A stretch of 64,000 nt of DNA from Volutella citrinella (taxonomy: Eukaryota > Ascomycota > Sordariomycetes > Hypocreales > Nectriaceae). A program made the position numbers and the translations under genes. The stretch is taken from assembly GCA_034401135.1 (NCBI GenBank), contig JAWZSP010000008.1:248001-312000 (forward strand). Direction: 5' to 3'. Below the pieces are notes generated by a model. It saw only the letters and a list, made by a program, of their open reading frames with translations. It was not told the DNA's origin and made no database searches. Positions 13,438 through 30,625 of this stretch are shown piece after piece. Within the stretch, counting starts at the first letter, position 1. Each line of letters begins with the position of its first letter.

Positions 13438-13949
13438 TTCTTGTGAGGGGTTGGCAGTGAGCAAGGTGGTGAAGAACGGTCGCCTCAAGAATGGCTGATA
13501 CGATACTATGTCAGAACTGGCTTCCTTTTTTGGCCATCAAATCAATCTTACTGCAGTCGCCCGACCTGCCAAACCACCTTATCCGAAACAACGGTGGTCA
13601 AGGTACCCCCCGCCCCGGCGCCCCCAAACGCCACTACCACCCTAGAGGCCTGAACCTCCACCACTTTTGCCGACCTGACCAGAATGAATAGCATGGTCGG
13701 GTTAGCCCTCTTCGAAGAAACCGGTCGGTCGGCTCGGATGCCAATCCAACACCAACGTCGGGGCCTGACCCTGATCCGACTGCCCATCAAAGGGATCCCG
13801 GATACCTCCCCAACTGAAACCTTGTTTCCCCGCTTCCACCCCAGCTTTTAAAGCACAGGCAGGTTCCTTGTAAACATGGACATCATCGACCAATCCAACG
13901 AAAGAAGGCTTCCGCTCTAGGGCATATTGTTTACCCCAGTTTTCGTAAA
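13438..13949. other. Shared divergent promoter, beta-glucosidase / lactonase
   Basis: 512-bp region between two head-to-head genes. It is C-rich, with several CCG/CGG words, and includes the motif at 13573-13585. No open frame of interest. Confidence 0.6.
13573..13585 (+). promoter_or_regulatory. Shared 13-bp motif, copy 1 (ACCACCTTATCCG)
   Basis: Match to ACCACMTTANCCG, followed by A. It lies 136 bp from the beta-glucosidase ATG and 365 bp from the lactonase ATG. The CCG end is the usual half-site of Zn2Cys6 regulators; this link is inference. Confidence 0.65.
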
Positions 13950-14964
13950 ATGTTGGTCCCTAATCTTGAAGCGGCTCCAGAGGTCAATTATCCTGGGTAT
14001 ACCCCCTGCTTCATCCATTAACAAGCTCAACAGGGCACCAAAATTTGGTTGCTACACCTTGGAAATTTGGTGGTCGATGAGGCCTTCTTTCTTCCACATG
14101 TATGCATCCTCACTCGTTACTCTCTGGCGTCTAGCCCACCATCTTAATGTCTTGCTTACACAACAGAGGCAAACGCATCGAGCACCAGTAACCCGAAACC
14201 TGACCATGCCCGTCGATCAATGGTCATGATATCTGTTCTTATCGACCATCCGGACGATGGACTCATTCTGTTTGAGACGGGAGCCGGCAAGGACTACCCT
14301 GAGCTTTGGGGCCCCCAGCTGGTTGACCTCTTTGCTCGGGAAAATTACACTGAGGATATGGAGCTGGACGCAGCGATCAAGAAGACTGGCAATGACATCA
14401 AGGACATCAAGGCCGTAATCATTGGGCATTTGCATCTGGACCACGCTGGTGGCCTTGAGCATTTCAGGGGAACAGACGTTCCCATTTATGCCCACGAACT
14501 GGAGCTGAAGCATGCCTTCTACAGCGTGGCAAGCAAGACGGATCTTGGTGAGTACGAATTTATAAGTTTTCAGGTCAGAAGCTAATCTGTATCCGCTACT
14601 AGGGCTCTATCTGCCATCCTATCTTCAATTCGACCTGAACTGGAAGCCATTCCATGGCTCCAGTCTTGGATTCGCTCGGGGCCTTTTCATTCACCATTGC
14701 CCGGGGCATACTCCGGGGCTCTGCATCATTCAGATTAACCTGAAGGAGAGTGGAACTTGGATCTTAACGTCTGACCAGTACATTGTGCAGGAAAACTACG
14801 ATTCTCTGGGGACGCAGGGCTGGCTGACCAGAGACCACAGCTCGTGGTCGCAGTCAAACCAGTTGGTGCACTTCTTGCAGAAGGCCACCAAGGGAAACCT
14901 CATTTTCGGGCATGACCGTGAAGTTTTTATGCGTTACAAATTGGCCCCTCATTATTATAGTTAG
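13950..14964 (+). CDS. Metallo-beta-lactamase-fold hydrolase (lactonase-like)
   Basis: Zinc hydrolase of the AHL-lactonase-like branch of the metallo-beta-lactamase superfamily; expected to open lactone or similar ester rings. Exons 13950-13982, 14034-14099, 14169-14547 and 14603-14964 give 279 residues. GTKIWLLHLGNL, the zinc motif GHLHLDHAGG, then HCPGHTPG, TSDQY and GHDREV supply the expected His/Asp ligands. The third intron ends in cagag, a minor acceptor choice forced by the frame. No signal peptide is seen. It is paired head-to-head with the beta-glucosidase. Metallo-lactamase-type enzymes are known in fungal clusters that degrade plant benzoxazinoids, which makes a detoxification role reasonable but unproven. 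Confidence 0.88.
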
Positions 14965-15512
14965 ACATCCACTGCCATCGTGCTGGCTTGGTGATTAAGG
15001 GAGAATGTTTTATTTTAGTGACGAACCTTGACCTAGAGGCTGACGGTACTTGTGAGAAATGACAATTTCGTTTTTTTTAAGAAAACGTGTTCAACTCAAT
15101 GACATGAAAGTGACCGCTAATATATGGGAATACTTGGTTCAGAACGACGTCTCAGTCTCAATACCTACTGGTGGCACTGGCCATGTCTCCGACATTGACC
15201 ACCTTGCTATGGATCCAACGGTCTGAGGGAGGAGTGAAGAAATGTATCTGCTATCCTAACTCACAATGCAGAAAATGAAATTAATGTAGTGATCCGAGGG
15301 ATTCTGTTAAAGTCAGTTGAGGTCGTTCCATACAAAGCCTCACAGCAGTGTATCTTCTCGACCCACAACACCAGTAGAGGACAAAGGAGATGGGTTCAAG
15401 GAACCAGCGAGGCGACCAAAGTCTTAAAAGTCATTTGGAGATATTTTGAGTATAGTAACCATAGATTGCTATTGTACAGAGCTCAGGCAAGAGCTTGTGT
15501 TGCCCCAATGGC
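14965..15512. other. Intergenic stretch between convergent genes
   Basis: 3' flanks of the lactonase and the PRISE-like reductase. No feature recognised. Confidence 0.5.
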
Positions 15513-16664
15513 CTATTTACCTGGAGTAAACTTGGGCAGCTGGCCAACCTTCACAAATTTGTCAAAGGCGTCAATAAAAGATTGGTACGAGTCAATGTGG
15601 CCGGTCCATCCAAATGCCCTGGCCTTGTTAATGCTCAGAGTTGCGTTCCACCCTCTCTGGAACACCCAATCTTGAAAGGCCCAGGTGCCAGCGTTCCAGG
15701 TGGGCTTTGCGCCTGGGCACCCTGCCTTGTCGCAAATTTTCTCCCAAACATCCTTCTTGTCCTTTGACCATGCATCAAAGCTTACATCCAGCTGCGTCTG
15801 GCCGTATTCAGGTCGTGGCTTCGAAAAGCATTGGTTCGTGCTCGCCTCAACCCCAAAGTGTGCCGCCAGACGGGGCCACATGTACTTCCACGAGAAGTAG
15901 TCGCCGTTGGTGACGTTGAAGGCCTGATTACCAGCATGAGGATGCGTTGACGCCCAAATGGTGATGTCGGCAATCAGGCGAAAATCGGAGATGTCGTCGT
16001 ATCCCTCATAGTAGATCTGGTTGGTTGGCATCTTTGCCTCGACGCCAAGCTCCTTGCAAACCATCATGTACAGTGCTATAGTCAAGGCCTCGTTCATACC
16101 ATTGGGCTTAATAGTGTAGCCGATGATGGCTTCGGGTCGGATGACGTTCCATAGCCACTTTTGGCCCTTTTGTCTCTCGATGAGGTGGTCTTCTTGATGG
16201 AAGTAAAAGTTCCCAACGGGTGACTCACGTCGGGGCTCCTCCTCCCGAGCAGGAGAGGGCACAGGACCAAGGTGAACATTATAGTGCTTGCCTCCAGTCT
16301 GTAGAACGCAACTCTCAAGATTCGAAGCCACCGCCAAGAGAGAATCGAGGAAATTCTCAAATAAGGCCTTGTTGGCCTCATTCAGCCTCTCGAAGTCATC
16401 GTCGTGCACATAAGACGAAAAGTACGCGTGAGTTACGTTGGCGCACGTAAGCTTCATCTCGGAGATCAGGGACTGAACATCTTTGGTAAAGTCCAGAGGG
16501 ATGAAGGTGATGCGTTCATCTTTGACAGTTGTTTTGAGGGGCGACAATGACGTTGCAATGATCTGGGACCACTCTTCAGGACCGGTCTTTTCGGATAGAT
16601 ACTGGATGAGGGCAGAACCGGTGATACCATTGGCACCGGTGATAAATGCGACTTTTGGTGCCAT
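15513..16664 (-). CDS. PRISE/SirQ-like NAD(P)-dependent reductase
   Basis: Single-exon gene of 383 residues starting MAPKVAFITGANGITG, a dinucleotide-binding GxxGxxG variant. It resembles the extended SDRs of the progesterone 5-beta-reductase/iridoid synthase (PRISE) group. Further marks are LQTGGKHYNVHLG, FYFHQEDHL, WNVIRPEAIIGY and NVTNGDYFSWKYMWP. These enzymes reduce activated C=C bonds of enones. An upstream ATG at 16757 is in frame, but the Rossmann start favours 16664. In this block it could reduce an unsaturated side chain or ring intermediate. The promoter holds only shortened variants of the shared motif (16877-16887 and 16896-16906). Confidence 0.88.
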   Translation of the reverse strand: MAPKVAFITGANGITGSALIQYLSEKTGPEEWSQIIATSLSPLKTTVKDERITFIPLDFTKDVQSLISEMKLTCANVTHAYFSSYVHDDDFERLNEANKALFENFLDSLLAVASNLESCVLQTGGKHYNVHLGPVPSPAREEEPRRESPVGNFYFHQEDHLIERQKGQKWLWNVIRPEAIIGYTIKPNGMNEALTIALYMMVCKELGVEAKMPTNQIYYEGYDDISDFRLIADITIWASTHPHAGNQAFNVTNGDYFSWKYMWPRLAAHFGVEASTNQCFSKPRPEYGQTQLDVSFDAWSKDKKDVWEKICDKAGCPGAKPTWNAGTWAFQDWVFQRGWNATLSINKARAFGWTGHIDSYQSFIDAFDKFVKVGQLPKFTPGK

Positions 16665-17100
16665 GTTTGGGTAGGTGTCAGGTATGAAGTGAAGTGTGGT
16701 TTGAGCAAGGGGAAGATGCGGGCTGCAGAGCTGGTGATTTGCTGGTGCACAATGCAACCCATGCCTCTTTTTGTGTCCAGGCTACCAACCGTCAGCAAAT
16801 CCAAGTCGGCTTTCTCAAACCACTTCATCCGACACGAACTTCAATCTTTTTCATGGAGAATCCAATCGGTTCATGTCGGGAAGGTGGGATTGGACCCACT
16901 TCTCCGCACCGGGTGGTTATGCTCTGCGGGGCCCCGGATCTGAGAGATGCTAATAGAGTTGCAGGACAATACTACCGATAATCCGATTCGCCGAGGGAAA
17001 AGTAGACGTCAATTCCTTAGCTGAGATACTATCTAGCACTACCATTTGTCGGCCCAAAAGTCGAGCACGATCCTATACCCGCGGACAAAGTCCTCATGAC
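16665..17100. other. Upstream region of the PRISE-like reductase
   Basis: Contains two 11-bp sequences close to the shared motif but one base short: CGGGAAGGTGG (16877-16887, reverse orientation) and CCACTTCTCCG (16896-16906). Otherwise nothing recognised. Confidence 0.35.
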
Positions 17101-17850
17101 CGCCCTGTTCAGCAGATCAGTCCTCCCAGCCATCCACCTATGCGACCTCTCAAGCACTTTAAACTCCTTCAGGCCAGACAGATTTATATCAAAACTATTA
17201 GCTATATCAAGATTCTTATCTGCTAATACTAAAAGAGCAAACGGCACTATAATATTAATTATATTTATAGCATTTAGCCTATTAGGATAGGCCGAGGCAC
17301 TAACTATAAACAGATTTCCCTTCACTGCAAGTACTTCCAACACCACCTTACCACCCCAGCACACCTACAGCTCTTGTTATTCCATCTTATATATAATCTC
17401 TAGAGGTAGGCGCGCTAGTACGCAGCGCTATTATTAAGCGGCACAATCTGCCCCTTCCTTTAGTGCTCCTTTAGGCCGGCTTCTATCGCTTAGCCTGAGA
17501 TCTCTAGAGGCTTGATTAATATACTTCTAGGCAGAGTATTGCAGTAAGTAACTATATGACTTAATATAGCTAGCATCTTATAAAGTAAGTACTTTTATCT
17601 CTCTATCTCCTACTCTACCTATCTTTTATTAATATAAGATAGAATAATAAATTTAAGAATCTTAATATTATCTAGACTATATATAGATTAGTTAATTATA
17701 AATATACTGTCTAAGTACTTATAAATAACCTTGCTTAGAATATTATATAAAGCAGAAGCACGATACCTTAGAGCTGTCTGCTTGAGGTGGGTTAGCGCCG
17801 CCTCTCTTTTGACTATTAGGCTAATATGAGGCTGTAGAAGAGGGTTGCCG
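17101..17850. mobile_element. AT-rich RIP-like relic of a repeated element
   Basis: From about 17100 to 17850 the composition changes sharply to AT-rich with very frequent TpA (tatataatctctagag, ttaatatagctagc, aagatagaataata), no surviving open frame of note, and a return to normal composition on both sides. This is how repeat-induced point mutation leaves old transposons in ascomycetes. I cannot identify the original element with confidence; a LINE-type retroelement is possible. Confidence 0.5.
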
Positions 17851-18177
17851 TCTTTATCGCGTGAGGCGAGCTATTTTGCAAATGGGCAAGACAGAAAACA
17901 TGTCCTACACACCGTAGCCGAATACCGCAGGACCTCGTCAGGTGCTGAAGGAGGTGCTGAGAGTGGACTTATACGTGCATAATAGAAACCACAGTTCATT
18001 CCACACTGAGGCCGGATGACGCAGTTGCTCGGTATGCTTAAGCTTGTATCTGCCTAGCCAGTGAAGTTTCCTGCATGCACGCTGAGCGGCCAAATCCAGC
18101 CAGAGCTGGACTTATCTCAAGAAGATCTCAATGGAATATTCATTTCAGCGAACTAGGTAGCTTAAGGCCTTTTCTGC
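17851..18177. other. Intergenic stretch
   Basis: Normal-composition flank between the AT-rich relic and the 3' end of the FAD monooxygenase. Nothing recognised. Confidence 0.5.
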
Positions 18178-19987
18178 TTACTGAATCACTGATATAGCAC
18201 CAAGTACCCGGTCTAAAACAGCCTTGAGCTTCTCTTTCGGCTGACTCACGCTCCTCAGAGAACGCCAGGCTACGAAATGATCCGGCCGCACGAGTACCAC
18301 GCCGTCTTCATCTACGCCTCGCACTTTCTGCCATTGGCGGTAGCAGTCCATGTAGTCGCAATGGAATCCGATGGAATAGCCATTCACCTTTACCCCAGTC
18401 GCCTTTGAGACGTTCTTTGCAGCCTGGAGCCATGCTTCTCCCCCAATACCCGTGAAGAGGGTAAACTCGCCCTGGCCGCAGAGATCCAGGGTTGACAGGC
18501 GTGGAGAAAGCGCGTCTGCGGCAAGCCAAACGTGAGGCAAATGGTACCCTGGGTAAGTGGAGATGAAGACCTCTCTGATGGCGTTGACATGATTGAATTT
18601 TGGGGGCTCGTCATCTAGCTCAGCGACGATGGCAGTTGAGTTGTTGTAGACCTGGTTCATTTGTATTCCCAAAGCCTGAACCTCATCTTCGGTCGCCTCC
18701 ATGGCTTCGCGGAGTTGTCTTCTGAGACCAGCACCCTCAGGGGTGGCCGAGGCGAGGACATTGGTGGTCTTGTCACGGCTTTCGGCATCAAGGCCGAGGA
18801 CGGCCCAAAGTCTTCTATGTGCTTCCATCCCATTATTCGCTCGGCGGACGATGCCATCCCCAACTGGCTTTCTTTCGGATGTTAGCGTCTCCAGCAAAGA
18901 GGGAGACGCAAGTCCCTTGAGAACGTATGCCAACTTCCAAGCGAGGTTAAAGGCATCCGAGATGCAAGTGTTGCTTCCAAGGCCGTTGATGGGAGGGTGG
19001 CGGTGAGTCGCATCTCCAATGCAAAAAACACGACCTTTCTGCCACCTTTCGGCCACCTGGTCATTGATTGACCAAGCAAAGTATGATAGGATTTCAATAT
19101 CCACACTGGACTCCCCAATCATCTCGTGGAGCCGGGCCTTGAGAGCATCCTCGGTTGGATGGAACGATGACAGGTCTTTGGTCGCAGGGTGCATGGATAC
19201 CACAAACTCGTTCCATGGTCTCACCATGCGGAAATTGCCGACTGCAGACCAATCAGGGGCTTGGGTGTTGAGAACCCAGTTCAGGCTCCCGGGGCGGTTG
19301 ACCAAGTACTTGGAGAGGTCGGCACGGATATGGACGTTGAAGGCAGTGTTGACCTGCCTTCCATAGATGGGGATTCCTAGTTGAGCAATGACTGGGCTTC
19401 TGGCTCCATCTCCGCCGACGAGGAACTTGGAGGTGACGGTGTACTCGTCGCCGCTGCTCCGATCGCGCAAGGTAGTCGAGACACCGTCATGCTTGTCCTC
19501 AAACCGGACGAACTCGGTGTAGAAACGAAACTCGGCCCCGAGTCGCTTGGCCTCGTCTACCACAACTGGTTCGAGGAGAGTCTGGGGGATGTCTGACATG
19601 ACACACGGGCTTGCAGCGATGTAGTCGCCGCGCTGTTCGGGGCGATTTCCCCAGGCCCAAAGGCGACCATACTCCTCGCCACAGAGTGTGTTGAGCCACG
19701 AGGTATGCTGCATTTCTGTGGAATCTCTGTCAGCTACAGCCTCAATGACGGGACACAGACGCAATGACTATACCGTCTGCCGGGGTGGCTAGATTCTCGA
19801 GCTTCTGCTCGAGCCCAGCATCTCGCAGAACTTCCATGGCTCTCTGGTTGAAGATGTGGGCGCGGGGCGTGTTTGCGGTCCCGCGGTGCTTCGACACGAC
19901 TAAGCATTTGATACCCATGCGCGCCAGCAACAGCGCGGTCGTAGCCCCCGAGGGGCCCGCACCGATGATTAGGACGGGGGTATCCAT
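18178..19987 (-). CDS. FAD-dependent aromatic hydroxylase (PheA/TfdB type)
   Basis: Flavin monooxygenase of the phenol 2-monooxygenase / PheA-TfdB-MhpA family, which adds OH to phenolic rings using NAD(P)H and O2. Exons are 19987-19774 and 19724-18178, giving 586 residues. The intron (49 bp, ending cagag) is chosen to keep frame; its acceptor could be off by a few bases. MDTPVLIIGAGPSGATTAL is the FAD ADP-binding motif, LVGGDGARS the DG motif, and GRVFCIGDATHRHPPINGLGSNTCISDAFNLAWKL the second FAD motif (quoted in parts: GDATHRHPP, GLGSNTCISDA). The C-terminal ~170 residues match the thioredoxin-like phenol-hydroxylase dimerisation domain, ending VVLVRPDHFVAWR. It is divergent from the second P450 and shares its promoter. 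Confidence 0.92.
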
Positions 19988-20529
19988 GTTGAGTCTTTGC
20001 TTGGTCTCACAGGCAACAGCGAGTGTTTAATCGGGGAGAAAGTCATGGACTGATGTGTTGGAGCATGCTGTCAGTGCTTTTAATCTGGTGCTCAACAGGT
20101 TCGCTTTTAACTCTGTCATTTGTAGCAACGTGTAGCCGGCCTTCGCCGTTGTAATGTGGATTATGTGGTTAGTGGCCTCACATCATCATCATCCCGATCT
20201 CCAACATGCGGGGAGCCCGTCAGCTCGGACTACTCTGTGGGCCCCAGGCTGTCGGGCACCGGTCCGCAACCACATTAGCCGACAGCGCCCCGGTGCGTGG
20301 GTAGTGGGGTAAGGGGAGCTATCCGCGGGGCTATGCTACCTCTGACTGACCCGCGTGTCCGAACAAGAGTGAGTTGCTCGGTCCACGGCAGAATGGTGAT
20401 GTCAGATTGGAATTGATCTGGTCCGAGGTGGTTTGCGATTTGGAAATAAATGGATATATCATATCTCCGCACTTCTTCCTCTGGGCCCTATCCGCAAACT
20501 GCACAATCACACTCACTCAGTTTTCGACA
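19988..20529. other. Shared divergent promoter, FAD monooxygenase / P450
   Basis: 542-bp region between head-to-head genes. It holds the shared motif at 20269-20281 and a partial second copy (TAATGTGG, reverse of CCACATTA) at 20152-20159. Confidence 0.6.
20269..20281 (+). promoter_or_regulatory. Shared 13-bp motif, copy 2 (ACCACATTAGCCG)
   Basis: Match to ACCACMTTANCCG, followed by ACAGC as in copy 3. It sits 282 bp from the FAD-monooxygenase ATG and 249 bp from the P450 ATG, almost the centre of the region. Confidence 0.7.
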
Positions 20530-22111
20530 ATGGCTTTCTCGCAAGACGTTGCTGAACAGCTTCTGGCTCTGGGCTTGGCACACTGGGTCGCTATTCTTGG
20601 ACTTCTCTACTTGATCTATGCCACGGTAAGTGCGGCGTGAACACTTGGTCACATCTTGAGCTGGCTAACAAGTGCCTTGTTTGCAGCTGATCTACCCCTT
20701 CCTCTTGTCCCCGGTACGCCATATCCCAGGCCCTTATCATGCCCGAGTTTCCAAGTTTGCACTTCAATGGGCGACGTTCAAACGCGCCCGGGCTGCATAC
20801 GCCACGAGGCTTCTGAAACAATACGGACCCGTTGTTGTGATTGCACCAGACCAGGTACACACGACGGATGATGCGGCCATGAAGATCATCTACGACAAGT
20901 CTTCCACCAAGACGAGCTTTTACAAGTCCATGGGCAGCTGGAAGGGCGTCATTTCGACGCTGGGATTCCCCGATTACCGGTCCGCCGCTCCCTCACGCAA
21001 CAACTTGCTGCAGTGTTTCCAGAACAGGAATCTCTCCGTCCTTGTCGAGAACCTCGAGGCACACGTGGATGAATTCATTCAGCTCTTGAAGGATGGAGCG
21101 TGTCGTGGTGCTATGGTTGATGGCGTTGTCATCTTCCGACTCCTCGCTCTGGACATTGTCACTGATGTCCTGTGGGGGGAGACACAGACTTTGCTTTCCA
21201 GCAAGAGTACCGACAGTGATGAAACTCCTGTATTCCTTCGTCGATTCCATGCCTTCAGCTCGTGGAACGCCTTGAAGAGTTTCATGCCCGGTCTGGACTT
21301 GATCGTTCGGTGCTTTGGAACCAGCAAATGGAAGCAACTTCGAAGCGACTGCAACGACATGGATGTCACAGCCCATCAAGCGCTCCAGCGATGGAAGGAA
21401 GACTCTGGAAAACGACGAGACAAGGATGTACTGTCCATGCTGCAGTCGATGAACTCTGCATCCGCCCCGGCTGTGCCCACCGAAGATATTCCTGCGTACA
21501 TGGTGGAGATGCTTGCGGCAGGCTCATCCACCACGTCGCACACGGCTGCCTTTGCCTGCTGGTTGTTGACGCGTCATCCCGCTGCCCAAAACCGCCTAAG
21601 GAAGGAATTGTTCGAGCAGTTCCCCAATGCCGAAGCGATTGATCTTCAAGACACCATGAACCTGCCGTATCTCGACGCTGTCATTCGCGAAACGATGCGC
21701 ATGTATCCCATGATCCCAGGTCCCCTGGAGCGACACCTTGGCAAAGACATTGTTGTGAATGGAATGGTGGTCCCGAAGGGTGTTATTGCGTCTACAGCTG
21801 CATATGACCAAGCCAGACTCGCCGAGGTGTTCCCCGGGCCCGACTCCTGGAAGCCAGAGCGTTGGATTGACGCCGATGAGCGCATGAAACTCAACTGGAC
21901 CCCCTTTGGCCACGGGTGTCGGTCATGCCCGGGATCCAACCTTGCCATGACGGAGCTCAAATACATGATTGGCAAGATCTTCCGATTGATGCGCGTTGTA
22001 ACTCCACCTGGATATGAGATGGACACGCTTGAACTAGCTGATATTTTTGCCGCTGGTTCAAAGACTGGACATGTTTGGCTCAAATTTGAGGAGGCCACGG
22101 ATGAGGTATGA
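20530..22111 (+). CDS. Cytochrome P450 monooxygenase (in catabolic block)
   Basis: Exons 20530-20625 and 20687-22111 give 506 residues. The first exon codes a membrane anchor (about residues 17-31 and on). It continues with VRHIPGPYHARVSKF (proline-rich hinge), the I-helix AAGSSTTSHTAAF, the ExxR motif VIRETMRMYP, WKPERW and the haem loop FGHGCRSCPG (Cys446). Intact and of normal length, resembling fungal CYP families linked to secondary-metabolite or xenobiotic oxidation. The shared promoter with the FAD hydroxylase suggests the two act on the same substrate set, for example demethylation or hydroxylation before ring cleavage. Confidence 0.93.
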
Positions 22112-22352: not shown

Positions 22353-25067
22353 TCAGCTATCTGAAATCAGTTGTGAAAACTTGAATTTGGCCAATATACT
22401 CGTTGCCTCAACAAACGACGACCATCTGCCAGAACTGACTCGCTTGTGCAGGCCAATGAATGGGTCAAATAGCCCCAGGTCGACCTCCCTGCTGCCGTCG
22501 ATTGATGCACGGAACGAGTCATCGAAGCCAAGAAGAGGGAGCCACTCTGAGACAGACTTGTCGCTCCTGCAGCCCACAAACGCCCAGAGAAGGGCTGCTC
22601 CGTGATGGAGGCCGATCAAGGCCAGGATGTTGGCCTTGGAGCGACGTTCAGGAGGCTTTCGCGATTCCTTATCCAGCAGCGACCATATCGAACTGACACG
22701 GCTCACTGCGACTGTGGCTTGCGGCGAGCTAGCCCACTGCTTAATCTTGTGGATCAACGCACTGTCGACGGCACCTCGCCTCATGACGAGATACTGGGCC
22801 TGGTGGACCTCTTGGATGGGTGCGAGCAGCTTCATATACCCTATGTGGTACAGGATCAGGCTGCTGAGTATAAAGGTGCGGTCCTGCTCGTTGCGTGCCA
22901 ATGTTTTGACCATGGGCAGAGCCCTTTCCCACTTGCGGAGAGCAAATAGCAGTCTTTGGCGATCGGTAACGAGGTCTGTCATGTGCCTGGAGACGGTATC
23001 AAGCGAATCCGTCTCCGGCACTTTGGAGAGGAGAGTGTCATCGATGCAGAATTGGGTCTGGTCAGTGAGCATCTTGCAAATATCCTCATGATTTTGCCGC
23101 CCCGTGGCGCGCTCAAACAGCTCTCCGTCGTGTGAGAAGCGCCATAGCGGCCACTGCAGCCCGAAGAGCAACAACTCGTGCGCCATTGGCTCCACAAGCG
23201 GCAGCATCTCGTGCCGGTCCATCATGATATGGTACATATCGGAGGCCAGTAGAGAGTTGTTTAGGCTGTAGTCGTGGTCGATGATGTCAAGCGCATGCTG
23301 GGGATGCATGGGGGTCCCGGCCCAGACCCTGTGACAGGTCGGGAACTCGAGGTCCAGTTCCTCCAAGGTGAGGAGCGGTTTGATGTGAAGAATAGTGCTC
23401 GTGAATACATCGCCTCGGAAGATGCCAAATGCCAGTCGCCGGCGGGCCTCGACGCCCAGCCATATGTTGAGGCGGTCCGTATCCGAGTGGACATTCTTCA
23501 TCCGGTGAAAGAGACCGATGCCGTTGCGATAGAAGGATGCCGAGAAGAGGCTCATTTTGCGAGCCTGGGCAACGAGGAGGAGCCCCAGGTGCTGGGCAAT
23601 GGAGAAAGCCTTGGCTTGGCTGAAGTAGACGGCCGTAACTTGGGTCAGCAGCCGTGCTTGGCCGAGCCACATGAGATCGGCTCCGTCGTCGAGGTCGAGT
23701 TCCAGAGGAGTGCTGAGATGCTTGCACAAAGCCGTATGCATCATGGGGCCAAACTCGCTGACGGAGCTGCCAGTGTACATTGCTCCGATGCCAGCCATGA
23801 CCAGGGACAGGCACGGGTGTAGATGCTCGTGCTGCGAGTTCTGGCGACTGACGAGGGGCCACAGGGGATGAAAGTTGTCGAAATACAGCTCCAGAAAATG
23901 ATCCAGGACAGTGGATGGCGAGAATGCAAGCTGAAAGGCCTCTGCTACTGTTTGCGAGGCTGAAGCCCAAAACTCGGTGCAGTCGGCTTTGCCTGGATCA
24001 AAACTCGCCGTCACAGCATTACTGGCCAACTCATTCACGGCTTGATGCTTGAGTGCTGTGTCGTCCACGATAGTCGAGTTTGGTGGTGTCACTTCCAACC
24101 CTTCTCCTCCGAGTCCTTGTACCTGTCCAGCGTTACTAGCGCCGGATGGAAAGCCCAGCCTCACCCGCGATGGTCCTTGGACGTTGGCGTCGGCGGGGGC
24201 ATGAGTGGGAGGGGGCTGGTGAGTTGGCGGTCGACAGGCATCCTGATACAGTTCCATTGGCAGGCCAATATCGGCCGAGATAATGGAGCCCATTGACGTA
24301 ATCGCGTCTTCGGTGAGGAATGTGCTCTCGTGCAGCCAAGCCCAGGGAATCGGATCGACCACTGCATCGACGAGATGCTCATCCTCGACGTTGATGAGGC
24401 GGGCGTGCTGCTCCGCGCTCGGTGCTTGTTCCATGGCCATCCCCATGTCCAGCGGTGGAATCGACCAGCCTTCAAGCCTGGCGGCAATGTCTGCTTCGTC
24501 GCCAGAGGTCAGGCCCCTTGACCAAGGGGCGGACGAATTGCTGCAGACGGTTGCCGAACTTGCCTCGTCAGTGGCGGCTCCCCCCAGACAGGCATCGTCC
24601 GATGAAGGCCGCCGATGGTGTTTCCGGCTGAGCTTGCGGCTGATGCGCTCCGACGACGTGTCAAACTTGCACTGCCTCCGCGCCGTCCGACAGGCGCCGC
24701 ACGGCTGCCGGCCGTCACATCGTTTCTTATTTTCCCGACACCTGTCACAGGCGGTGTGGCAGCGCTTGCGATGTTGTGTGGTCGTTGGGCTCTGGCCCGG
24801 CTGATGATGAATGTCCTGGCCTTGGTGCAGCTTCATGTGACGCGTCAAGAGATCATGGCGGAAGAAGCCGATGTCGCAGACAGGGCAGATGCTCGTGCAT
24901 TTGTCCAGGTGGTTTTTGGCGTGTCGGGTCAGGGCAGTCGAACTGGAAAACTGCTTGTCGCAGTCTTTGCAGGAGAAGTGGCTCTCGGGGGAAGACGAGT
25001 TCTGTGGCTGCTCGTGCTCGTGCTCGCTCGTCTCCAAGGCGGCGGGGGACTGCTGGAGGTGCTCCAT
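22353..25067 (-). CDS. Transcription factor with two C2H2 fingers plus a Zn2Cys6 cluster
   Basis: Single-exon regulator of 904 residues. Two C2H2 zinc fingers lie at about 32-53 (FSCKDCDKQFSSSTALTRHAKNH) and 60-81 (CPVCDIGFFRHDLLTRHMKLH), quoted by key residues. A Zn2Cys6 cluster lies at about 107-133 (CDRCRENKKRCDGRQPC, then CRTARRQC). A long fungal-specific transcription-factor middle domain follows (about 370-700). The C2H2-C2H2-Zn2Cys6 order is a known but less common fungal combination. Its position in the middle of the catabolic block makes it the best candidate for the pathway regulator acting on ACCACMTTANCCG (inference). The frame is intact. A 57-bp piece of this gene is repeated upstream at 25403-25459. 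Confidence 0.93.
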   Translation of the reverse strand: MEHLQQSPAALETSEHEHEQPQNSSSPESHFSCKDCDKQFSSSTALTRHAKNHLDKCTSICPVCDIGFFRHDLLTRHMKLHQGQDIHHQPGQSPTTTQHRKRCHTACDRCRENKKRCDGRQPCGACRTARRQCKFDTSSERISRKLSRKHHRRPSSDDACLGGAATDEASSATVCSNSSAPWSRGLTSGDEADIAARLEGWSIPPLDMGMAMEQAPSAEQHARLINVEDEHLVDAVVDPIPWAWLHESTFLTEDAITSMGSIISADIGLPMELYQDACRPPTHQPPPTHAPADANVQGPSRVRLGFPSGASNAGQVQGLGGEGLEVTPPNSTIVDDTALKHQAVNELASNAVTASFDPGKADCTEFWASASQTVAEAFQLAFSPSTVLDHFLELYFDNFHPLWPLVSRQNSQHEHLHPCLSLVMAGIGAMYTGSSVSEFGPMMHTALCKHLSTPLELDLDDGADLMWLGQARLLTQVTAVYFSQAKAFSIAQHLGLLLVAQARKMSLFSASFYRNGIGLFHRMKNVHSDTDRLNIWLGVEARRRLAFGIFRGDVFTSTILHIKPLLTLEELDLEFPTCHRVWAGTPMHPQHALDIIDHDYSLNNSLLASDMYHIMMDRHEMLPLVEPMAHELLLFGLQWPLWRFSHDGELFERATGRQNHEDICKMLTDQTQFCIDDTLLSKVPETDSLDTVSRHMTDLVTDRQRLLFALRKWERALPMVKTLARNEQDRTFILSSLILYHIGYMKLLAPIQEVHQAQYLVMRRGAVDSALIHKIKQWASSPQATVAVSRVSSIWSLLDKESRKPPERRSKANILALIGLHHGAALLWAFVGCRSDKSVSEWLPLLGFDDSFRASIDGSREVDLGLFDPFIGLHKRVSSGRWSSFVEATSILAKFKFSQLISDS

Positions 25068-25300
25068 TTCCAGGGCCCTTGTGCTTGTGGGCAGACACGG
25101 AGGATGAGACAGACGCAGGGAGACGGCCGAGTAGGTAGGTCGCGTTTGTCGCTTTTTTTGCCATTTCTGCGGGGTAACCCCAGAATCCGCGAGAGCCCCC
25201 CCCCCTCTTTCACACTGAGTTCATGCAGTGGCGCACCTCTGCGGATTCAGCCACTAAGAGCAGGTCTAAACTGGAGTGACCCGAATCTCACAACCTCGGA

Positions 25301-25312
25301 CCACCTAAGCGG
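25301..25312 (+). promoter_or_regulatory. Weak match to the shared motif (CCACCTAAGCGG)
   Basis: Matches the 12-bp core CCACMTTANCCG at 10 positions and lies about 235 bp upstream of the regulator's ATG. It could be an autoregulatory site; this is weak. Confidence 0.25.
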
Positions 25313-25402
25313 CGGAAGAGGTGGTATAGTCCGAGCTGCTCTAATCTGCGTTAGACTGTTGGCCACCGGGCAGGCCTGCAACACTCCACAACGTCAGCAG
25401 CA

Positions 25403-25637: not shown

Positions 25638-26618
25638 TCAGGCGTCCTCAAACACCATGCGGTTTGTCAAGCGGCCAATCTTCTCAATGGCGACATCTAC
25701 CCGGTCCCCATGCTTCAAGAAGGCCGGTGGCTTCATGAACAGGCCCACACCACCGGGAGTTCCAGTCATGATGAGGCTTCCCTTCTGGAGAGTCTGTCCC
25801 TGGCTGCAGAACGCCACGAGCTTCTTGACGCCAAAGCACAAGTCTGACGTGTTGGTCTGCTGCCGCACTTGACCGTTGACAATTGTCTTCAGGTCCAAGT
25901 TGCCTGCGTCTCCGAGCACCTTTGATGATACCAGAGCAGGCCCGAGCGGAGCGTACTTGTCAAAGGACTTGCTGAAGGACCATTGAGGGACTGGTCCTGC
26001 CTTGCCGCTTTCGCGCTGCCAGTCTCGGGCGGACACGTCGTTTCCGACGGTAAAGGCTGCAACATATTTCATCGCATCCTCCTCGCTGACATTCTTGGCG
26101 TCTTTGCCAATGACAACGACGAGTTCACCCTCGTAATCGCACTGGCTCTGGGCTATGGCAGGAATTGGTATGTCCTCGCCGTAATCTGCCACGGCTGGGC
26201 TTGGCTTGGTAAATATCGTCGGGCAGGTGGGTAGCGGCCGTCCTGTCTCAAGAACTGGAAAACGACATGGCAGGTTAGCACATGCTTCACCAGCTACAAG
26301 CGGAGAGAGGGGAAGGGTAGACTCACTGTGCGTCTTGTAGTTGAGGCCAACACATCGAACAATGGGCACGTCTTGCGCTGCCACTGGGCCAAGAAGCTTC
26401 CCGACCACTTCGATTTGGCCGTTGGGCTTTGCCTCGAGATAATTCAGACCCTCTAGCACCTTGACTTGGAGCTGGCCATGCTCGGCAAGTTCGGCGATGC
26501 TGTCTTCCTGCCCGCTGGCCAGGATGGGGTCACCCCAACGGACCTGATCCGTGTTACCTTGGGGAAGGTATCGCACCAGCCGATCCCATGGGGTAGCAAA
26601 ATCTCCAGAGCCGGGCAT
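25638..26618 (-). CDS. Fumarylacetoacetate hydrolase (FAH) family enzyme
   Basis: Metal-dependent C-C hydrolase/hydratase/decarboxylase family that processes ring-cleavage products. Exons 26618-26327 and 26254-25638 give 302 residues. The 72-bp intron (26326-26255) is a multiple of three and open, so it is easily mis-called as coding. Removing it gives the family sequence GLNYKTHILETGRPLPTCP. Other marks are FTKPSPAV, YEGELVVVIG (acidic metal ligands), TVGNDVSARDWQ and IMTGTPGGVGLFM. The ATG at 26618 (MPGSGDFATPW) is preferred over one at 26708. It is divergent from the extradiol dioxygenase and shares a promoter with motif copies. Confidence 0.92.
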   Translation of the reverse strand: MPGSGDFATPWDRLVRYLPQGNTDQVRWGDPILASGQEDSIAELAEHGQLQVKVLEGLNYLEAKPNGQIEVVGKLLGPVAAQDVPIVRCVGLNYKTHSESTLPLSPLVAGEACANLPCRFPVLETGRPLPTCPTIFTKPSPAVADYGEDIPIPAIAQSQCDYEGELVVVIGKDAKNVSEEDAMKYVAAFTVGNDVSARDWQRESGKAGPVPQWSFSKSFDKYAPLGPALVSSKVLGDAGNLDLKTIVNGQVRQQTNTSDLCFGVKKLVAFCSQGQTLQKGSLIMTGTPGGVGLFMKPPAFLKHGDRVDVAIEKIGRLTNRMVFEDA

Positions 26619-26832
26619 TTTGGGTTGGTCAAGGTGACGAGCAGAGACAAAAGTTGGAGTGGTACTGTGAGAATGAATCCAGCCAATGGACAATTGAGTG
26701 TCTTGCACAAAGGAACACGGCCGCGTATCCTCTTATTTGTCTGATATGCGTCTCTGATCTTCCCCCCGGCCTGACCCCACCGACACCAACCGAAACGCAC
26801 CACGAGTGCCTCGCCTCCTACGGAACTTGGGA

Positions 26833-26845
26833 ACCACTTGACCCG
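26833..26845 (+). promoter_or_regulatory. Variant of the shared motif (ACCACTTGACCCG)
   Basis: Matches the 13-bp consensus at 11 positions. It starts exactly 21 bp (about two helical turns) before the full copy at 26854. Confidence 0.4.
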
Positions 26846-26853
26846 CGTCCAAA

Positions 26854-26866
26854 ACCACCTTACCCG
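26854..26866 (+). promoter_or_regulatory. Shared 13-bp motif, copy 3 (ACCACCTTACCCG)
   Basis: Match to ACCACMTTANCCG followed by ACAGC. It lies 236 bp from the FAH-family ATG and 230 bp from the dioxygenase ATG. Confidence 0.7.
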
Positions 26867-27095
26867 ACAGCCCCGCAACGCCACCCGCGTAACCGTGGGG
26901 TATTGGCCCCGACGCCTGGGGGGCAATTCGTCAGCAAAAGTGACACTGCAGGTATGCGCCAGCTATATTGTGAGCCATTCTCAGCATCAAAAGAGACCCA
27001 GGACTAATTGAGCATTATCAGCACCACCACTTTCACAATTTCAGAATTTCACTTGAGACACCTGCCCTCATATTCGTGACAAAAACTACCCAGCG

Positions 27096-28160
27096 ATGCC
27101 TATCCCTCAAGATGACCCGCGAATCCGCATTTTGGCAACTGCCTTTGTGGACTATCACCACACCGATCTTGACGCAGCCAAGAAGTTCCTCTTGGACTTT
27201 GGCATGACAATTGTCCAAGATCGTGGTGATGAGGTCTATTTTGGCGGGTACGGCAGCGAGCCATTCGTCTACGTCGCCCGAAAATCGCAACGACGCAGCT
27301 TTGGCGGAGCCGCCTTTCAAGTGGAATCTCGCGGCGAGCTCGAAAGGGCTTCCAAGCTCCCCTTTGCATCCCCTATTACGGCATTGGATGCCCCCGGAGG
27401 AGGCGAAATTGTCACGCTTACCGATCCCGTTGGCCACAAAGTCCATTTGGTTGCCGGCCAGGCTCCAAAGGAAGCCAGCCCCGTGAACCTAGAGAAACTC
27501 ACCGTCAACTACGAAGTCGACAAGCCTCGAAAGGGCCTGTTCCAGAGATTTGAACATGGACCTGCTCCTGTACATCGATGGGGCCACTACGGCGTCACTT
27601 ATACTGCCGGAAAGTACCAAGAGATGTTTGACTGGTACACGAAGCATCTTGCACTGGCCGTATCCGACGTCGTTGTCAAAGATGGGAAGCCCGTCACCTG
27701 TTTCTTCCACATTGACCGTGGTTTGGAGTTTACCGACCATCATGCATTTTTCTTCAAGCCCGCCAAGCCTGGACAAGATCTTGATGTTGCCCATGCAGCA
27801 TTTGAGGTGCACGACTTCGATATCCAACAGCTGGGGCACAAGCACCTGCAGGAACGGGGTTATGAGCTATGCTGGGGTGTTGGTAGAGTATGTTGCTGTC
27901 CATGCACAAATAACTGCATACTTTTCACTAACACCTCTCCAGCATGTCCTTGGCAGTCAAGTCTTTGATTACTGGTTTGACCCGAGCAAATTCATTCTTG
28001 TACGTGCCAAGTCCAAGTTGACGCCGACACCCTGACTCACATGACATAGGAGCATTACGCTGATGGCGATATTGTGAATTCGGAGACACGGATCGCAAAG
28101 GTTCCAGCAGGTCCTGATGCCTTGGCAGTGTGGGGTCCTCCTGTTCCTGCTGTCTTCTAA
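27096..28160 (+). CDS. Extradiol (VOC-superfamily, BphC-like) dioxygenase
   Basis: Type-I extradiol ring-cleavage dioxygenase-like enzyme made of two VOC modules. Exons 27096-27887, 27943-27999 and 28050-28160 give 319 residues. The first module starts at RILATAFVDYHHTDLDAAKKF. The second contains WGHYGVTY (His), VAHAAFEVHD (His) and, across the last two introns, HVLGSQVFDYWFDPSKFIL/EHYADGD, where the Glu completes the usual two-His-one-carboxylate iron site. Pieces are quoted by key residues. Such enzymes cleave catechols next to the OH pair. Meta-cleavage is unusual in fungi, so the exact reaction needs proof. Head-to-head with the FAH-family gene. Confidence 0.88.
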
Positions 28161-28562
28161 GTTCTAGCTGTAGCTTCAGATGTACCTTGTTCTGCTTCGA
28201 AATAGAGACACAATTAGTTGCCTCAAGTACGGCTAACAAGAACTCTAACCATAACGCATTGCAATATGGATTAACATAACGTAACAACTGTCAGCCCGTT
28301 GAATGTTGTTTAGTCTGCAGCCCCTGTGAGTGTGAAAAGCGTGCCTTGGATTGCTCGAATAAAAGCCAATTTGTGCTCTTTCCAAGCATCATGATCAATT
28401 TCCGGAGAATGGGAAGACATTACCAATGCCCTAAGCTGCTGATTGAAATTGATTCACTCAATAAGTGTAAAACTAAGTTCGTAGTTGAGAAGATGAGCGT
28501 GGCAGTTCAATCCATTTGACCATTCAGTGCCCATGTCAAATGGGATTATGCTCAGAGTACGA
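28161..28562. other. Intergenic stretch between convergent genes
   Basis: 3' flanks of the dioxygenase and the MFS permease. Nothing recognised. Confidence 0.5.
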
Positions 28563-30170
28563 CTACAGATTGTATCTAAATGCCTTGTTCTCCTTATCCG
28601 TAAGGTCTTCAGAGGTTCTAGTCGGCTCCAAGGAACCATACTCTCTGTCTCGCTTCCGATTCTCAAGAGAAAGGTAGAGTCTAAGGGCTTGAGAAACAAC
28701 AAAGCAGACCACAAAGCAGACCATGATGCCGATAAAGCTTCTGTCATATCGAGGAGCATATTGTCTAAATGTTGTCAGACAGACCTGTGGCGAAATTGCC
28801 AACCGGGATTACTTACGCGTTAAACAACAGGGGTCCAATAATGTTGCCAATTGAGTAGCCGATGAAGGTGCCTGCAGCATATGTGGCCTTCTTTGTGTGA
28901 CCAGCTACATTGGATGTACCGAGACCAATGCACTGCGTCCACGCGGATGAGAAGAAGATGACAAGATAGAAAGCAAAGATCCGCCCGGCCGTATTCGAAG
29001 ATGGTAGCTGCCAACTGATACTCGTTAGAGAATACTGAAGCTAAGCAATATGTGAAGCTTACAGTAGGGCACAGCCAAGAATCACAGGTATACTGGCCAC
29101 AGTCATGATGTTGAGGCGAGAGTTTTTCACGCGCCTTGAGATGTAACCAGAACCCAGGATGCAAACCAGTGAAATGGCACCGATGGGCAAGTTCAGGAGT
29201 AGGGATTTAAACACATCAAAGCCCATGCCATGGAATACAATAGAAGCAAAGGTGTTGACAACGCCAGCTCCAGTGCAAGAGACAATGGAGAGAACGATAA
29301 GGCCCCACATCTGGACGTCAAGGAGCGCCTCTTTGACCTGATACGGTTTGATGTAGTTGTTGTGCTCGCCAGTATTGTTGGACAAAATTCGTTCCGACAA
29401 CATGCGTCTTTCTTGGTCAGTAAAACCCTTGGCGTGCTGCGGCTCATCGGGAAACAGCCACCACAGGGCAACCCCCCAGAGAAGAGTGATTGCTCCGGCG
29501 ATGAGATACATGTACTGCCAGGGACGCAGGCTTCCAGAGGTGATGTGGCCCAGCCCATAGTTGAGAATGGGGGAGAACATAAGGGAGCCTCCGCTGAATG
29601 AGTACCAGACGCTTGATCGCATCGCTTGCTCCGAGTGAGTGTACCAAAGGCCGACCACCATCATGAAAATAGGTGAGACGCCGGCTTCCAAGAATCCTAG
29701 CATGAAGCGATTGACCATGAAGCCGGGAAAAGAGGTACAGGCAGGTGTGCAGAGCATGACAAAAGACCAAGCCACGCAGATTCCGACGCACACATGCCTG
29801 GGGGGGTATTTCTGCGCAAGCATCGAGGCGGGATAGGTTCCGAACAGGGTTCCAAAGTAGAATATGAGGGATGCCCAGGAGTAGTCGAGGTTCCGTTCGA
29901 GTCCGAGATCCTCTCGCAGACCAAAGATGGCAGCTTGGCTGAGAATCGCTTTGTCGTAGTACTGCAAGGCATAGGTGAAACAAAGCTGCATCTCCATCAG
30001 TCTCGGCTCCTTTTTGGACAATGGCAGATGAGTCTCACCACTGGCATCAACTTCCAGTCGATCTTTCGCAAGAGGCGGCGGCTCTCCGCTTCATCGACGA
30101 CGGAGACAGGAACTTGATCCTCGACCTGCTCAAGCTCAGGCTTCTCTCGCAGCGTGTTTTCTTGCACCAT
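28563..30170 (-). CDS. MFS permease, anion:cation symporter (Dal5/allantoate permease-like)
   Basis: Exons 30170-30039, 29991-29063, 29014-28817 and 28764-28563 give 486 residues. The start RKIDWKLMPV/MQLCFTYALQYYDKAILSQAAIFGLREDL is the hallmark of the fungal allantoate/vitamin/carboxylate permease family (quoted in parts: KIDWKLMPV, YDKAILSQAAIFGLR). FMLGFLEAGVSPIF, FSGGSLMFSP, WWLFPDEP and the later WQLPSSNTAGR and YAAGTFIGYSIGNIIGP fit the same family. Introns are 47, 48 and 52 bp. It probably imports an organic acid or phenolic acid substrate of the pathway. Divergent from the quinone oxidoreductase gene. Confidence 0.92.
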
Positions 30171-30625
30171 GGTTCTTGAAGAGATAAATTTGTTTGAGTT
30201 GTAGTTGCAAATCTTGAGATGAGCTCGTCGTTGTATACGTCTTATTCTTATACCCCGGATTGCAGGGGACTTCCCCAGATTCCCCCGCATAGTAGACCAT
30301 TTGGTCAACCCGACAGCCAAGCCCGAGCAACCAGCTCTAACCAGGGCCTTTGTCGCTTAACAGTCGTCTTTCCGTTGGCTCCGCTCGGACCGTCTCTTGG
30401 ACCGGAACCGAAATACCACATTATCCGCATGCGTTTCGGAAGCGGGCCGGATCACCCTAGCGGCACGGAACCACCATCCCCAGCCGATGGTGCTGAACAG
30501 GGATCAAATGGCTTTGCGCAAATACGCTATCATTTTTTACTTTCCATAAATCTGCGTAACCGGATCTTGATCGTGACATCCATTACGCCGAGCTGCACAA
30601 GGTTGTGATCATTATGACGAGAATA
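30171..30625. other. Shared divergent promoter, MFS permease / quinone oxidoreductase
   Basis: 455-bp region holding the shared motif at 30415-30427. No other feature recognised. Confidence 0.6.
30415..30427 (+). promoter_or_regulatory. Shared 13-bp motif, copy 4 (ACCACATTATCCG)
   Basis: Match to ACCACMTTANCCG. It lies 245 bp from the permease ATG and 199 bp from the oxidoreductase ATG. Confidence 0.65.

What the first reader, a model, noticed from the sequence alone, without database searches (positions are those of the whole stretch)
13438..30625. One 13-bp motif in all four divergent promoters of the catabolic block
ACCACMTTANCCG occurs at 13573, 20269, 26854 and 30415, always on the plus strand. 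Each copy lies between a head-to-head gene pair: beta-glucosidase/lactonase, FAD hydroxylase/P450, FAH/dioxygenase, permease/quinone reductase. Distances to the two ATGs are 136-365 bp. A simple estimate (11 fixed positions plus one two-way position, both strands, 64 kb, equal bases) gives about 0.015 chance matches in the window. A variant sits 21 bp from copy 3 and a weak match precedes the regulator gene. I scanned by eye, so other copies may exist.
Basis: seen in the sequence. Interest (0 to 1): 0.88.

Follow-up and report, generated by a model that had tools for sequence, protein, structure and literature searches.

The report
Two-part DNA switch, fungal gene cluster
A rare 13-letter DNA word sits in front of eight fungal genes that probably break down plant aromatic compounds, and its two halves resemble what the two kinds of zinc finger in the neighbouring regulator protein are predicted to read, which gives a directly testable binding site for a common but poorly understood class of fungal regulators.

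Summary
The motif is real. ACCACMTTANCCG occurs exactly four times in the window, once in each divergent promoter, and only eight times in the 45.1-Mb fungal genome. None of the other four copies lies in an evident promoter. De novo comparison of the four promoters returns this motif (0 of 200 shuffles as good). It is bipartite: ACCAC-N5-CCG, read the other way CGG-NTAAN-GTGGT, with rigid spacing. Ten copies fall in seven upstream regions of the cluster, against one in the other 60.5 kb, adding the sugar-transporter, PRISE-reductase and regulator genes. The regulator at 22353-25067 carries two C2H2 fingers followed by a Zn2Cys6 cluster. By a published module table its fingers come nearest to GTG and GTN readers, in the order that places CGG next to the Zn2Cys6 cluster. 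Best reading: one dual-specificity activator binds this composite site and switches on the cluster, including itself. The cluster encodes a hydroxylase/extradiol dioxygenase/FAH meta-cleavage module. Binding, expression and conservation of the site in other fungi remain untested; no fungal DNA collection was available.

The parts
13573..13585 (+). exact motif copy 1, GH3 / lactonase divergent promoter
13660..13672 (+). second copy, 2 mismatches, keeps ACCAC-N5-CCG
20269..20281 (+). exact motif copy 2, FAD hydroxylase / P450 divergent promoter
20157..20169 (-). weak copy (2 mismatches; CCG reads CCA)
26854..26866 (+). exact motif copy 3, FAH / dioxygenase divergent promoter
26833..26845 (+). 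second copy 21 bp from copy 3, keeps ACCAC-N5-CCG
30415..30427 (+). exact motif copy 4, MFS permease / quinone reductase divergent promoter
8069..8081 (+). 1-mismatch copy upstream of the sugar transporter
8108..8120 (-). 2-mismatch copy, opposite strand, keeps ACCAC-N5-CCG
7992..8004 (-). weak copy (ACCCC instead of ACCAC)
16819..16831 (+). 2-mismatch copy 155 bp upstream of the PRISE reductase ATG, keeps ACCAC-N5-CCG
25300..25312 (+). weak copy upstream of the regulator (left arm of an inverted pair; CGG instead of CCG)
25313..25325 (-). copy upstream of the regulator (right arm of the inverted pair), keeps ACCAC-N5-CCG; candidate autoregulation site
22353..25067 (-). regulator, 904 aa: two C2H2 fingers (residues 33-53 and 61-81), Zn2Cys6 (107-133), Fungal_trans
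8574..10139 (+). sugar transporter (Sugar_tr); range is the two frames with Pfam matches, 5' end not modelled (candidate ATG at 8267)
10798..13437 (-). GH3 beta-glucosidase, 838 aa, two introns (one GC-AG)
13950..14966 (+). metallo-beta-lactamase-fold lactonase-like protein (AhlS/AiiA models, below cut-off); first exons and start uncertain
15513..16664 (-). PRISE-like reductase, 383 aa
18178..19987 (-). class A FAD aromatic hydroxylase, 583 aa; best solved relative 2-hydroxybiphenyl 3-monooxygenase
20530..22111 (+). cytochrome P450, 506 aa
25638..26618 (-). FAH-family hydrolase, 302 aa
27096..28160 (+). vicinal-oxygen-chelate extradiol dioxygenase, 319 aa, with conserved His/His/Glu at candidate metal-ligand positions
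28563..30170 (-). MFS permease, 484 aa
30626..31671 (+). NAD(P)H quinone oxidoreductase, PIG3 family (MDR), 331 aa with a short first intron

Best explanation
The word is the operator of a pathway-specific regulon. A single dual-specificity activator, encoded in the cluster at 22353-25067, reads it as a rigid composite site, 5'-CGG-NTAAN-GTGGT-3': its Zn2Cys6 cluster docks on CGG(NTAA), and its two C2H2 fingers dock on GTG (finger 2) and GT(T/A) (finger 1). One site between two head-to-head genes serves both, so four exact sites control eight genes. Weaker copies bring in the sugar transporter, the PRISE reductase and the regulator's own gene (an inverted pair, suggesting autoregulation). The regulon encodes uptake and deglycosylation of an aromatic compound (transporters, GH3, lactonase, reductases), ring hydroxylation, extradiol ring cleavage and hydrolysis of the product by a FAH-family enzyme. 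The likeliest substrates are ortho-hydroxyphenylpropanoids such as coumarins or melilotate. Shown here: the motif, its rigid spacing, its concentration in the cluster's upstream regions, the domain architecture, the conserved finger residues, and same-contig linkage of regulator and enzymes in other fungi. Inferred: binding, activation, inducer and substrate.
For: (1) Four of eight exact genomic copies lie in this 17-kb block; of the other 4, none lies in an evident promoter. (2) De novo best four-way match of the divergent promoters: score 69 against a shuffle mean of 56.0 (sd 1.8, maximum 62), 0 of 200. (3) ACCAC-Nk-CCG, k = 0 to 20: 10 at k=5 in seven upstream regions (3,488 bp) and at most 1 at any other k; the three other relative orientations reach at most 3 at any k; the remaining 60.5 kb has 1 at k=5. 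In six regions, without the sugar transporter's: 8 at k=5, and 0 of 300 shuffles reach 8 at any k (largest 3). In the four divergent promoters alone: 6. (4) Promoters share only 11-19 bp with each other, so they are not duplicates. (5) Finger helices: finger 2 R-D-L/I/V-R and finger 1 R at position 6 in 20 of 22 aligned regulators, the other 2 lacking the region; all eight finger ligands present in 18 of 22, the Zn2Cys6 cysteines in 21 of 22. A published module table pairs RSDALTR with GTG, TSGSLVR with GTT and DPGALVR with GTC (PMC3607563); the nearest modules to this regulator are GTG for finger 2 and GTG for finger 1, which agrees with the site's GTG-GT[T/A] except at its last base. Domain order N-finger 1-finger 2-Zn cluster-C matches subsite order, because fingers run antiparallel to the strand that they read (general knowledge). 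(6) Two other dual proteins found in 8 stretches of this genome have different finger-1 helices (RPEHLLR, RQEHLLR).
Against: No binding or expression data. No orthologous promoter could be read. The finger prediction was made after seeing the motif; finger 2 position 3 is Leu, which none of the 19 table rows used holds, so the T of GTG is not dictated; the nearest module for finger 1 of this regulator predicts G at the last base, where the ten sites have T6 A3 G1. For some homologs the nearest finger-2 module is GGG or GAG. Fingers are incomplete in 4 of 22 aligned homologs, and 8 of the 11 homologs that I left out of the alignment have no DNA-binding domain in their listed Pfam domains. The regulator's own promoter has only weak copies, and the permease/quinone-reductase promoter has a single copy. 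Slightly shorter patterns are not specific: CGGNTAAKGTGG has 21 genomic matches, 4 of them here (control 52). Paralogous dioxygenase loci show no exact copy in six 10-kb stretches; two 1-mismatch copies were seen where 0.33 are expected. The inner NTAA is only 7-8 of 10 conserved per position.
Confidence: 0.67

Rival explanations
1. Two different proteins read the two halves: an XlnR/AraR-class Zn2Cys6 factor on CGGNTAA and a separate C2H2 factor on GTGGT, held at fixed spacing by contact between them.
For: XlnR and AraR are reported to prefer CGGNTAAW and CGGDTAAW (PMC6486530, passage read); the cluster holds a beta-glucosidase and a sugar transporter.
Against: Two of the four exact sites have G, not A/T, after NTAA. 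CGGNTAA on either strand occurs 14 times in the window, and only 4 of these carry the other half. Weaker copies keep CGG and GTGGT but relax NTAA, the reverse of what XlnR needs; they were collected by the two halves, so this is partly circular. Rigid 5-bp spacing is more simply explained by one protein.
Confidence: 0.13
2. The cluster regulator binds through its Zn2Cys6 domain only and the GTGGT half is contacted by a linker or partner subunit; the C2H2 fingers are vestigial or bind elsewhere.
For: For Cmr1p, deleting the Zn cluster abolished melanin production while deleting the C2H2 part only reduced it (as told in PMC5415576, passages read). Loss of C2H2 function is described among paralogs. 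Fingers are incomplete in 4 of 22 aligned homologs while the Zn cluster is complete in 21 of 22.
Against: All eight finger ligands are kept in 18 of 22 and the reading residues R, D, R of finger 2 in 20 of 22 aligned homologs. GTGGT is 10 of 10 among the ten rigid copies, but those were chosen by that half.
Confidence: 0.12
3. The word is read by another factor, for example the second Zn2Cys6 protein at 33.2-35.4 kb or an unlinked regulator, and the dual protein controls something else.
For: A second Zn2Cys6/Fungal_trans gene lies about 1.5 kb beyond the block.
Against: No copy with up to 2 mismatches lies between 30428 and that gene; one 2-mismatch copy (33887) lies within it. The dual regulator shares contigs with the enzymes in other fungi (the second gene was not searched) and is itself preceded by weak copies.
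Confidence: 0.07
4. Chance, or copies left by promoter duplication or a mobile element.
For: Single-mismatch copies are common in the genome (246 of 254 matches at up to 1 mismatch; the reversed control has 591).
Against: Expected exact matches in the block 0.0015; promoters share no similarity beyond 11-19 bp; rigid spacing with 0 of 300 shuffles.
Confidence: 0.01

Closest known systems
Dual-specificity C2H2 + Zn2Cys6 fungal activators (Cmr1p, Pig1p; the Aspergillus nidulans group of nine)
   Same: Two C2H2 fingers followed by one Zn2Cys6 cluster near the N-terminus; pathway role for Cmr1p and Pig1p (melanin).
   Different: No composite recognition site is given for them in the passages that I read; PMC5415576 says that the details of recognition 'remain obscure'. 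This locus supplies a candidate site. Kinship to Cmr1p itself was not tested.
XlnR / AraR sites (CGGNTAAW, CGGDTAAW)
   Same: The CGGNTAA half.
   Different: Fixed GTGGT at 5 bp from CGG; G found after NTAA in two of four exact sites; the regulator has added C2H2 fingers.
Fungal pathway-specific catabolic clusters with a local regulator, for example the nicotinate hxn cluster (PMC5746545, search listing only)
   Same: Clustered catabolic genes with an in-cluster zinc-finger regulator (HxnR, C2H2).
   Different: Regulator class; here the site is defined by sequence only and the substrate is unknown.
Pseudomonas mandelii 7HK4 hcd genes for 7-hydroxycoumarin (PMC6222606, PMC7913881, passages read)
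   Same: HcdA class A FAD hydroxylase, HcdB type I extradiol dioxygenase, HcdC of the FAA-hydrolase family and HcdE, an MDR-type reductase, parallel the FAD, VOC, FAH and quinone-reductase genes here.
   Different: Bacterial operon; this cluster adds a beta-glucosidase, lactonase-like protein, PRISE reductase and P450. Sequences were not compared directly; substrate unproven.

Membership tests
C2H2 + Zn2Cys6 dual-specificity regulators | C2H2 finger(s) and a Zn2Cys6 cluster in one protein, N-terminal | tested here: met
   Pfam zf-C2H2 31-53, Zn_clus 105-141, Fungal_trans; second finger read from the sequence: C61, C64, H77, H81, each in 90% or more of 22 aligned; all ligands present in this protein
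C2H2 + Zn2Cys6 dual-specificity regulators | Both domains used for DNA recognition | not testable with these tools
   Only indirect: helix residues and bipartite site agree
XlnR/AraR-type regulators | Zn2Cys6 without C2H2 fingers, site CGGNTAAW | tested here: not met
   The regulator has C2H2 fingers; 2 of 4 exact sites have G at the W position. That XlnR/AraR lack C2H2 fingers is recalled.
Pathway-specific regulated gene cluster | Shared site upstream of the cluster genes, rare elsewhere | tested here: met
Pathway-specific regulated gene cluster | Co-induction dependent on the local regulator | not testable with these tools
   No expression data
Pathway-specific regulated gene cluster | Site conserved in orthologous clusters | not testable with these tools
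   No fungal DNA collection and no relatives of the genome held; a viral-contig scan gave 24 stretches, none a relative
Meta-cleavage module (hydroxylase, extradiol dioxygenase, FAH) | Three enzyme families together | tested here: met
   all three (E <= 1e-10) within one locus in 45 of the 80 bacterial loci kept
Meta-cleavage module (hydroxylase, extradiol dioxygenase, FAH) | Extradiol metal ligands His, His, Glu | tested here: met
   H164, H215, H216 and E284 invariant in 22 of 22 aligned; that ligands are among these is my reading of the fold family, from recall
Coumarin / melilotate catabolism | Growth on, or induction by, the substrate | not testable with these tools
   Inference from gene content only

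The most novel reading that the evidence does not exclude
A single fungal protein reads a rigid composite operator with two unlike zinc modules at once: Zn2Cys6 on CGG and a C2H2 pair on GTGGT, 5 bp apart. This would be a general recognition mode of the dual-specificity class, in which finger helices set one half, and perhaps the linker the spacing, of each paralog's site.
Probability: 0.55. Interest if true: 0.75.

Novelty: new variant of a known kind. Interest (0 to 1): 0.62.

Why it matters
Zn cluster + C2H2 regulators occur in 140 of 191 fungal TFomes surveyed (73%, PMC5415576 Table 3, section read), yet how they recognise DNA is called obscure there. This locus gives a specific composite site, ten natural variants of it and a regulator with a partly readable finger code, so simultaneous versus alternative use of the two domains can be tested directly. 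It also defines a candidate regulon for a fungal meta-cleavage pathway whose core genes are linked to the same regulator in species that I place, from recall, in several ascomycete classes.

Tried and rejected
Rejected: chance; promoter duplication; XlnR/AraR as sole reader; the neighbouring Zn2Cys6 gene as reader, on weak grounds.

Led nowhere or spoke against: footprinting in relatives (no relatives of the genome are held; the viral-contig scan found none). Paralogous dioxygenase loci carry no exact motif; in six 10-kb stretches (L021-L026) there are two 1-mismatch copies (L021 4572, L024 7570) where 0.33 are expected (P about 0.04), left open. An extended 19-base pattern gave 88 genomic matches at up to 3 mismatches, below the reversed control (130); at up to 2 mismatches 5 of 9 lie in the cluster, but its flanks were taken partly from these sites, so this is circular. 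ACCACNTNANCCGACA: 5 matches, 3 in the cluster, control 6. CGGNTAANGTGGTT: 5 matches, 3 in the cluster, control 8. CGGNTAAKGTGG: 21 matches, 4 in the cluster, control 52.

Paper searches: CGGNTAA with Zn2Cys6, 1 paper; C2H2 with Zn2Cys6 and four more terms, 78 papers, 15 listed, one read in part; fungal meta-cleavage, 2, not read; Cmr1 with binding site, 2, not read; trihydroxytoluene oxygenase with fungus, 2, not read; six spellings of the core, 8, passages of two read, none with a GTGGT composite in what I saw; phenolic clusters, 2, not read; coumarin and melilotic acid, 24, 10 listed, passages of two read; finger helices, 8, passages of four read; C2H2 + Zn2Cys6 + fungi + DAP-seq + motif, 0. 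'Not described' rests on these searches of an open-access library only.

First gene-model scripts had frame errors at several starts and were replaced; the lactonase model is incomplete, and the quinone-reductase model was completed.

Selection notes: the sugar-transporter and PRISE upstream regions were added after I had seen hits there, and the sugar-transporter region assumes a start at 8267; counts for six regions are and for the four divergent promoters alone. Of 32 regulator homologs, 21 were aligned with the query; left out were 8 without a listed zinc-finger domain and P0030-P0032 (weak partial matches). Two of the 22 lack the finger region.

Changed on checking: the copies elsewhere in the genome are now described by what was established for each; finger conservation was recounted; confidence in the best explanation went from 0.68 to 0.67 because of the incomplete fingers.

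Full report
WHAT IS THERE. The window is G000:C8:248001-312000 of a 45.1-Mb genome with intron-split genes and Zn2Cys6 regulators, hence a filamentous fungus. The nearest listed proteins are from Ilyonectria and Fusarium (84% for the FAD hydroxylase; 81% for the dioxygenase), so probably a hypocrealean. ACCACMTTANCCG occurs exactly four times, at 13573, 20269, 26854 and 30415, each between two head-to-head genes. The whole genome has eight exact copies; the reversed pattern has nineteen. Of the four copies elsewhere, one lies inside a phosphomannose isomerase frame, one between the converging ends of a short-chain dehydrogenase frame and a Fungal_trans_2 frame, and two in long open frames (one with a TAFII28-like stretch, one without a Pfam match) whose coding status I did not establish. 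With the density elsewhere, 0.0015 copies are expected in the block.

THE MOTIF IS BIPARTITE. Without using the word, the best four-way 13-base match of the four divergent promoters is this motif (score 69; shuffles 56.0, sd 1.8, largest 62; 0 of 200). Copies with up to two mismatches number 18 in the window, against 6.7 expected in shuffles (largest 15); 13 of the 18 lie in seven upstream regions that make up 3,488 bases. What the copies share is ACCAC and CCG at a fixed distance: ACCAC-N5-CCG occurs ten times in those regions, at most once at any other spacing from 0 to 20, and once in the other 60.5 kb; the three other relative orientations of the halves reach at most three at any spacing. 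In six regions, leaving out the sugar transporter's, there are eight, and 0 of 300 shuffles reach eight at any spacing; the four divergent promoters alone hold six. Reading the other strand, the ten copies give CGG-[A5 G3 C2]-T(8/10)-A(7/10)-A(8/10)-N-GTGGT-[T6 A3 G1]. The CGG and GTGGT halves are 10 of 10 by construction. CGGNTAA without the other half is common: 14 on either strand in the window, 4 of them in these sites. ACCAC/GTGGT runs at 8.1 per kb in the four divergent promoters against 1.65 elsewhere. The upstream regions share at most 11-19 bases with each other.

THE REGULATOR. The gene at 22353-25067 encodes 904 residues with two C2H2 fingers, a Zn2Cys6 cluster and the fungal middle domain. 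In the alignment of 22 regulators, 20 retain the finger-helix region. All 20 have R, D and R at finger-2 positions -1, 2 and 6 with L, I or V at 3, and R at finger-1 position 6; 18 of the 20 have S or A at finger-1 position 3. All eight finger ligands are present in 18 of 22 and all six Zn2Cys6 cysteines in 21 of 22. A published table of finger modules (PMC3607563, table passage read) pairs RSDALTR with GTG, TSGSLVR with GTT and DPGALVR with GTC. This regulator's finger 2 is RHDLLTR and its finger 1 SSTALTR; some homologs have a finger 1 close to TSGSLVR, for example TQGSLAR. Against the 19 table rows that I saw, the nearest modules include GTG for finger 2 in 15 of 20 (with ties; GGG, GAG or GCG also appear) and a GTN triplet for finger 1 in 18 of 20 (with ties). 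Fingers run antiparallel to the strand that they read (general knowledge), so the prediction is 5'-GNG-GTN-3', with the Zn2Cys6 cluster, which follows finger 2, on the 5' side. That is CGG ... GTG GT. Two other dual proteins of this genome, found in 8 stretches, have finger-1 helices RPEHLLR and RQEHLLR, unlike this one. The match was noticed after the motif was known and is a prediction, not a test. Position 3 of finger 2 is Leu, which the rows used do not cover, and the nearest module for this regulator's finger 1 predicts G at the last base, where the sites have mostly T or A.

HOW IT LIKELY WORKS. One activator reads one composite site between each gene pair and so drives two genes. Extra weaker copies lie beside the main one in three of the four divergent promoters. 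The regulator's own upstream region has an abutting inverted pair (25300/25313), which suggests autoregulation. The PRISE reductase (16819) and the sugar transporter (8069, 8108, 7992) appear to belong to the same regulon. XlnR and AraR, which prefer CGGNTAAW and CGGDTAAW (PMC6486530, passage read), show that a Zn2Cys6 domain can read this half; two of the four exact sites have G at the W position.

THE PATHWAY. The FAD hydroxylase is closest among solved structures to 2-hydroxybiphenyl 3-monooxygenase over its whole length (439 bits). The dioxygenase is a type I extradiol relative (catechol 2,3-dioxygenase and HpaD models, all below their cut-offs) with invariant H164, H215, H216 and E284 in 22 aligned sequences. 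The FAH protein resembles HpcE/HpaG-type enzymes. The same three families make up hcdABC for 7-hydroxycoumarin in Pseudomonas mandelii, where HcdE, an MDR-type enzyme, reduces the coumarin double bond first (PMC6222606 and PMC7913881, passages read). With a GH3 beta-glucosidase, a lactonase-like protein, a PRISE reductase and a PIG3-type reductase alongside, a plant ortho-hydroxyphenylpropanoid (coumarin or melilotate type, perhaps as glucoside) is my best guess for the substrate. This is inference.

CONSERVATION. Regulator and FAD hydroxylase or dioxygenase lie on a contig of the same length, or carry neighbouring locus tags, in at least 16 of 29 regulator homologs. Tags such as LTR10_003965/003967/003968, OPT61_g1247/g1249, IL306_013675/013677 and IFR05_000335/000337 show close neighbours. 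Equal contig length is indirect evidence. One Elasticomyces protein joins FAH (67%) and the regulator (31%) in one model, in the order and orientation seen here. Whether the site itself is conserved could not be tested; no fungal DNA was available.

VERDICT. A cluster-specific operator is close to certain on sequence grounds. That the in-cluster dual-specificity regulator reads both halves at once is the best explanation but unproven. In-cluster regulators with shared sites are well known (recalled); a composite site fitted to a C2H2 + Zn2Cys6 protein was not found in the searches listed. PMC5415576 (section and passages read) calls recognition by this class obscure, so the finding makes an open question testable.

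Noticed in passing
window 33211-35423: A second Zn2Cys6/Fungal_trans regulator lies just beyond the block; no copy of the motif with up to 2 mismatches lies between 30428 and its frame, one 2-mismatch copy (33887) lies within it.
   Followed up: partly
window 37423-40352: Sugar transporter and an enolase-superfamily (MR_MLE_C) gene suggest a neighbouring sugar-acid catabolic cluster.
   Followed up: no
window 44452-45333: Open frame with a HeLo (prion-inhibition and propagation) domain, as in fungal incompatibility proteins.
   Followed up: no
window 17180-17780: Very AT-rich stretch between the PRISE reductase and the FAD hydroxylase, possibly a repeat-induced-mutation relic (seen).
   Followed up: no
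G000 C1:33345-34357, C2:4442706-4443837, C2:5026637-5027095, C11:522991-523995: Four dioxygenase paralog loci; none has an exact motif copy in the 10-kb stretches read, but two 1-mismatch copies lie at L021 4572 and L024 7570.
   Followed up: partly
L108 and L112 (G000 C1:2337700, C8:523500): Two further C2H2 + Zn2Cys6 proteins in the genome with different finger helices; useful comparison proteins for the recognition code.
   Followed up: partly
P0024 (Elasticomyces elasticus LTR10_003967): Gene model fuses a FAH enzyme to the regulator homolog; probably an annotation join of neighbours, but it shows their adjacency.
   Followed up: yes
window 13317-13380: The GH3 gene model needs a GC-AG intron at its first splice site.
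   Followed up: no
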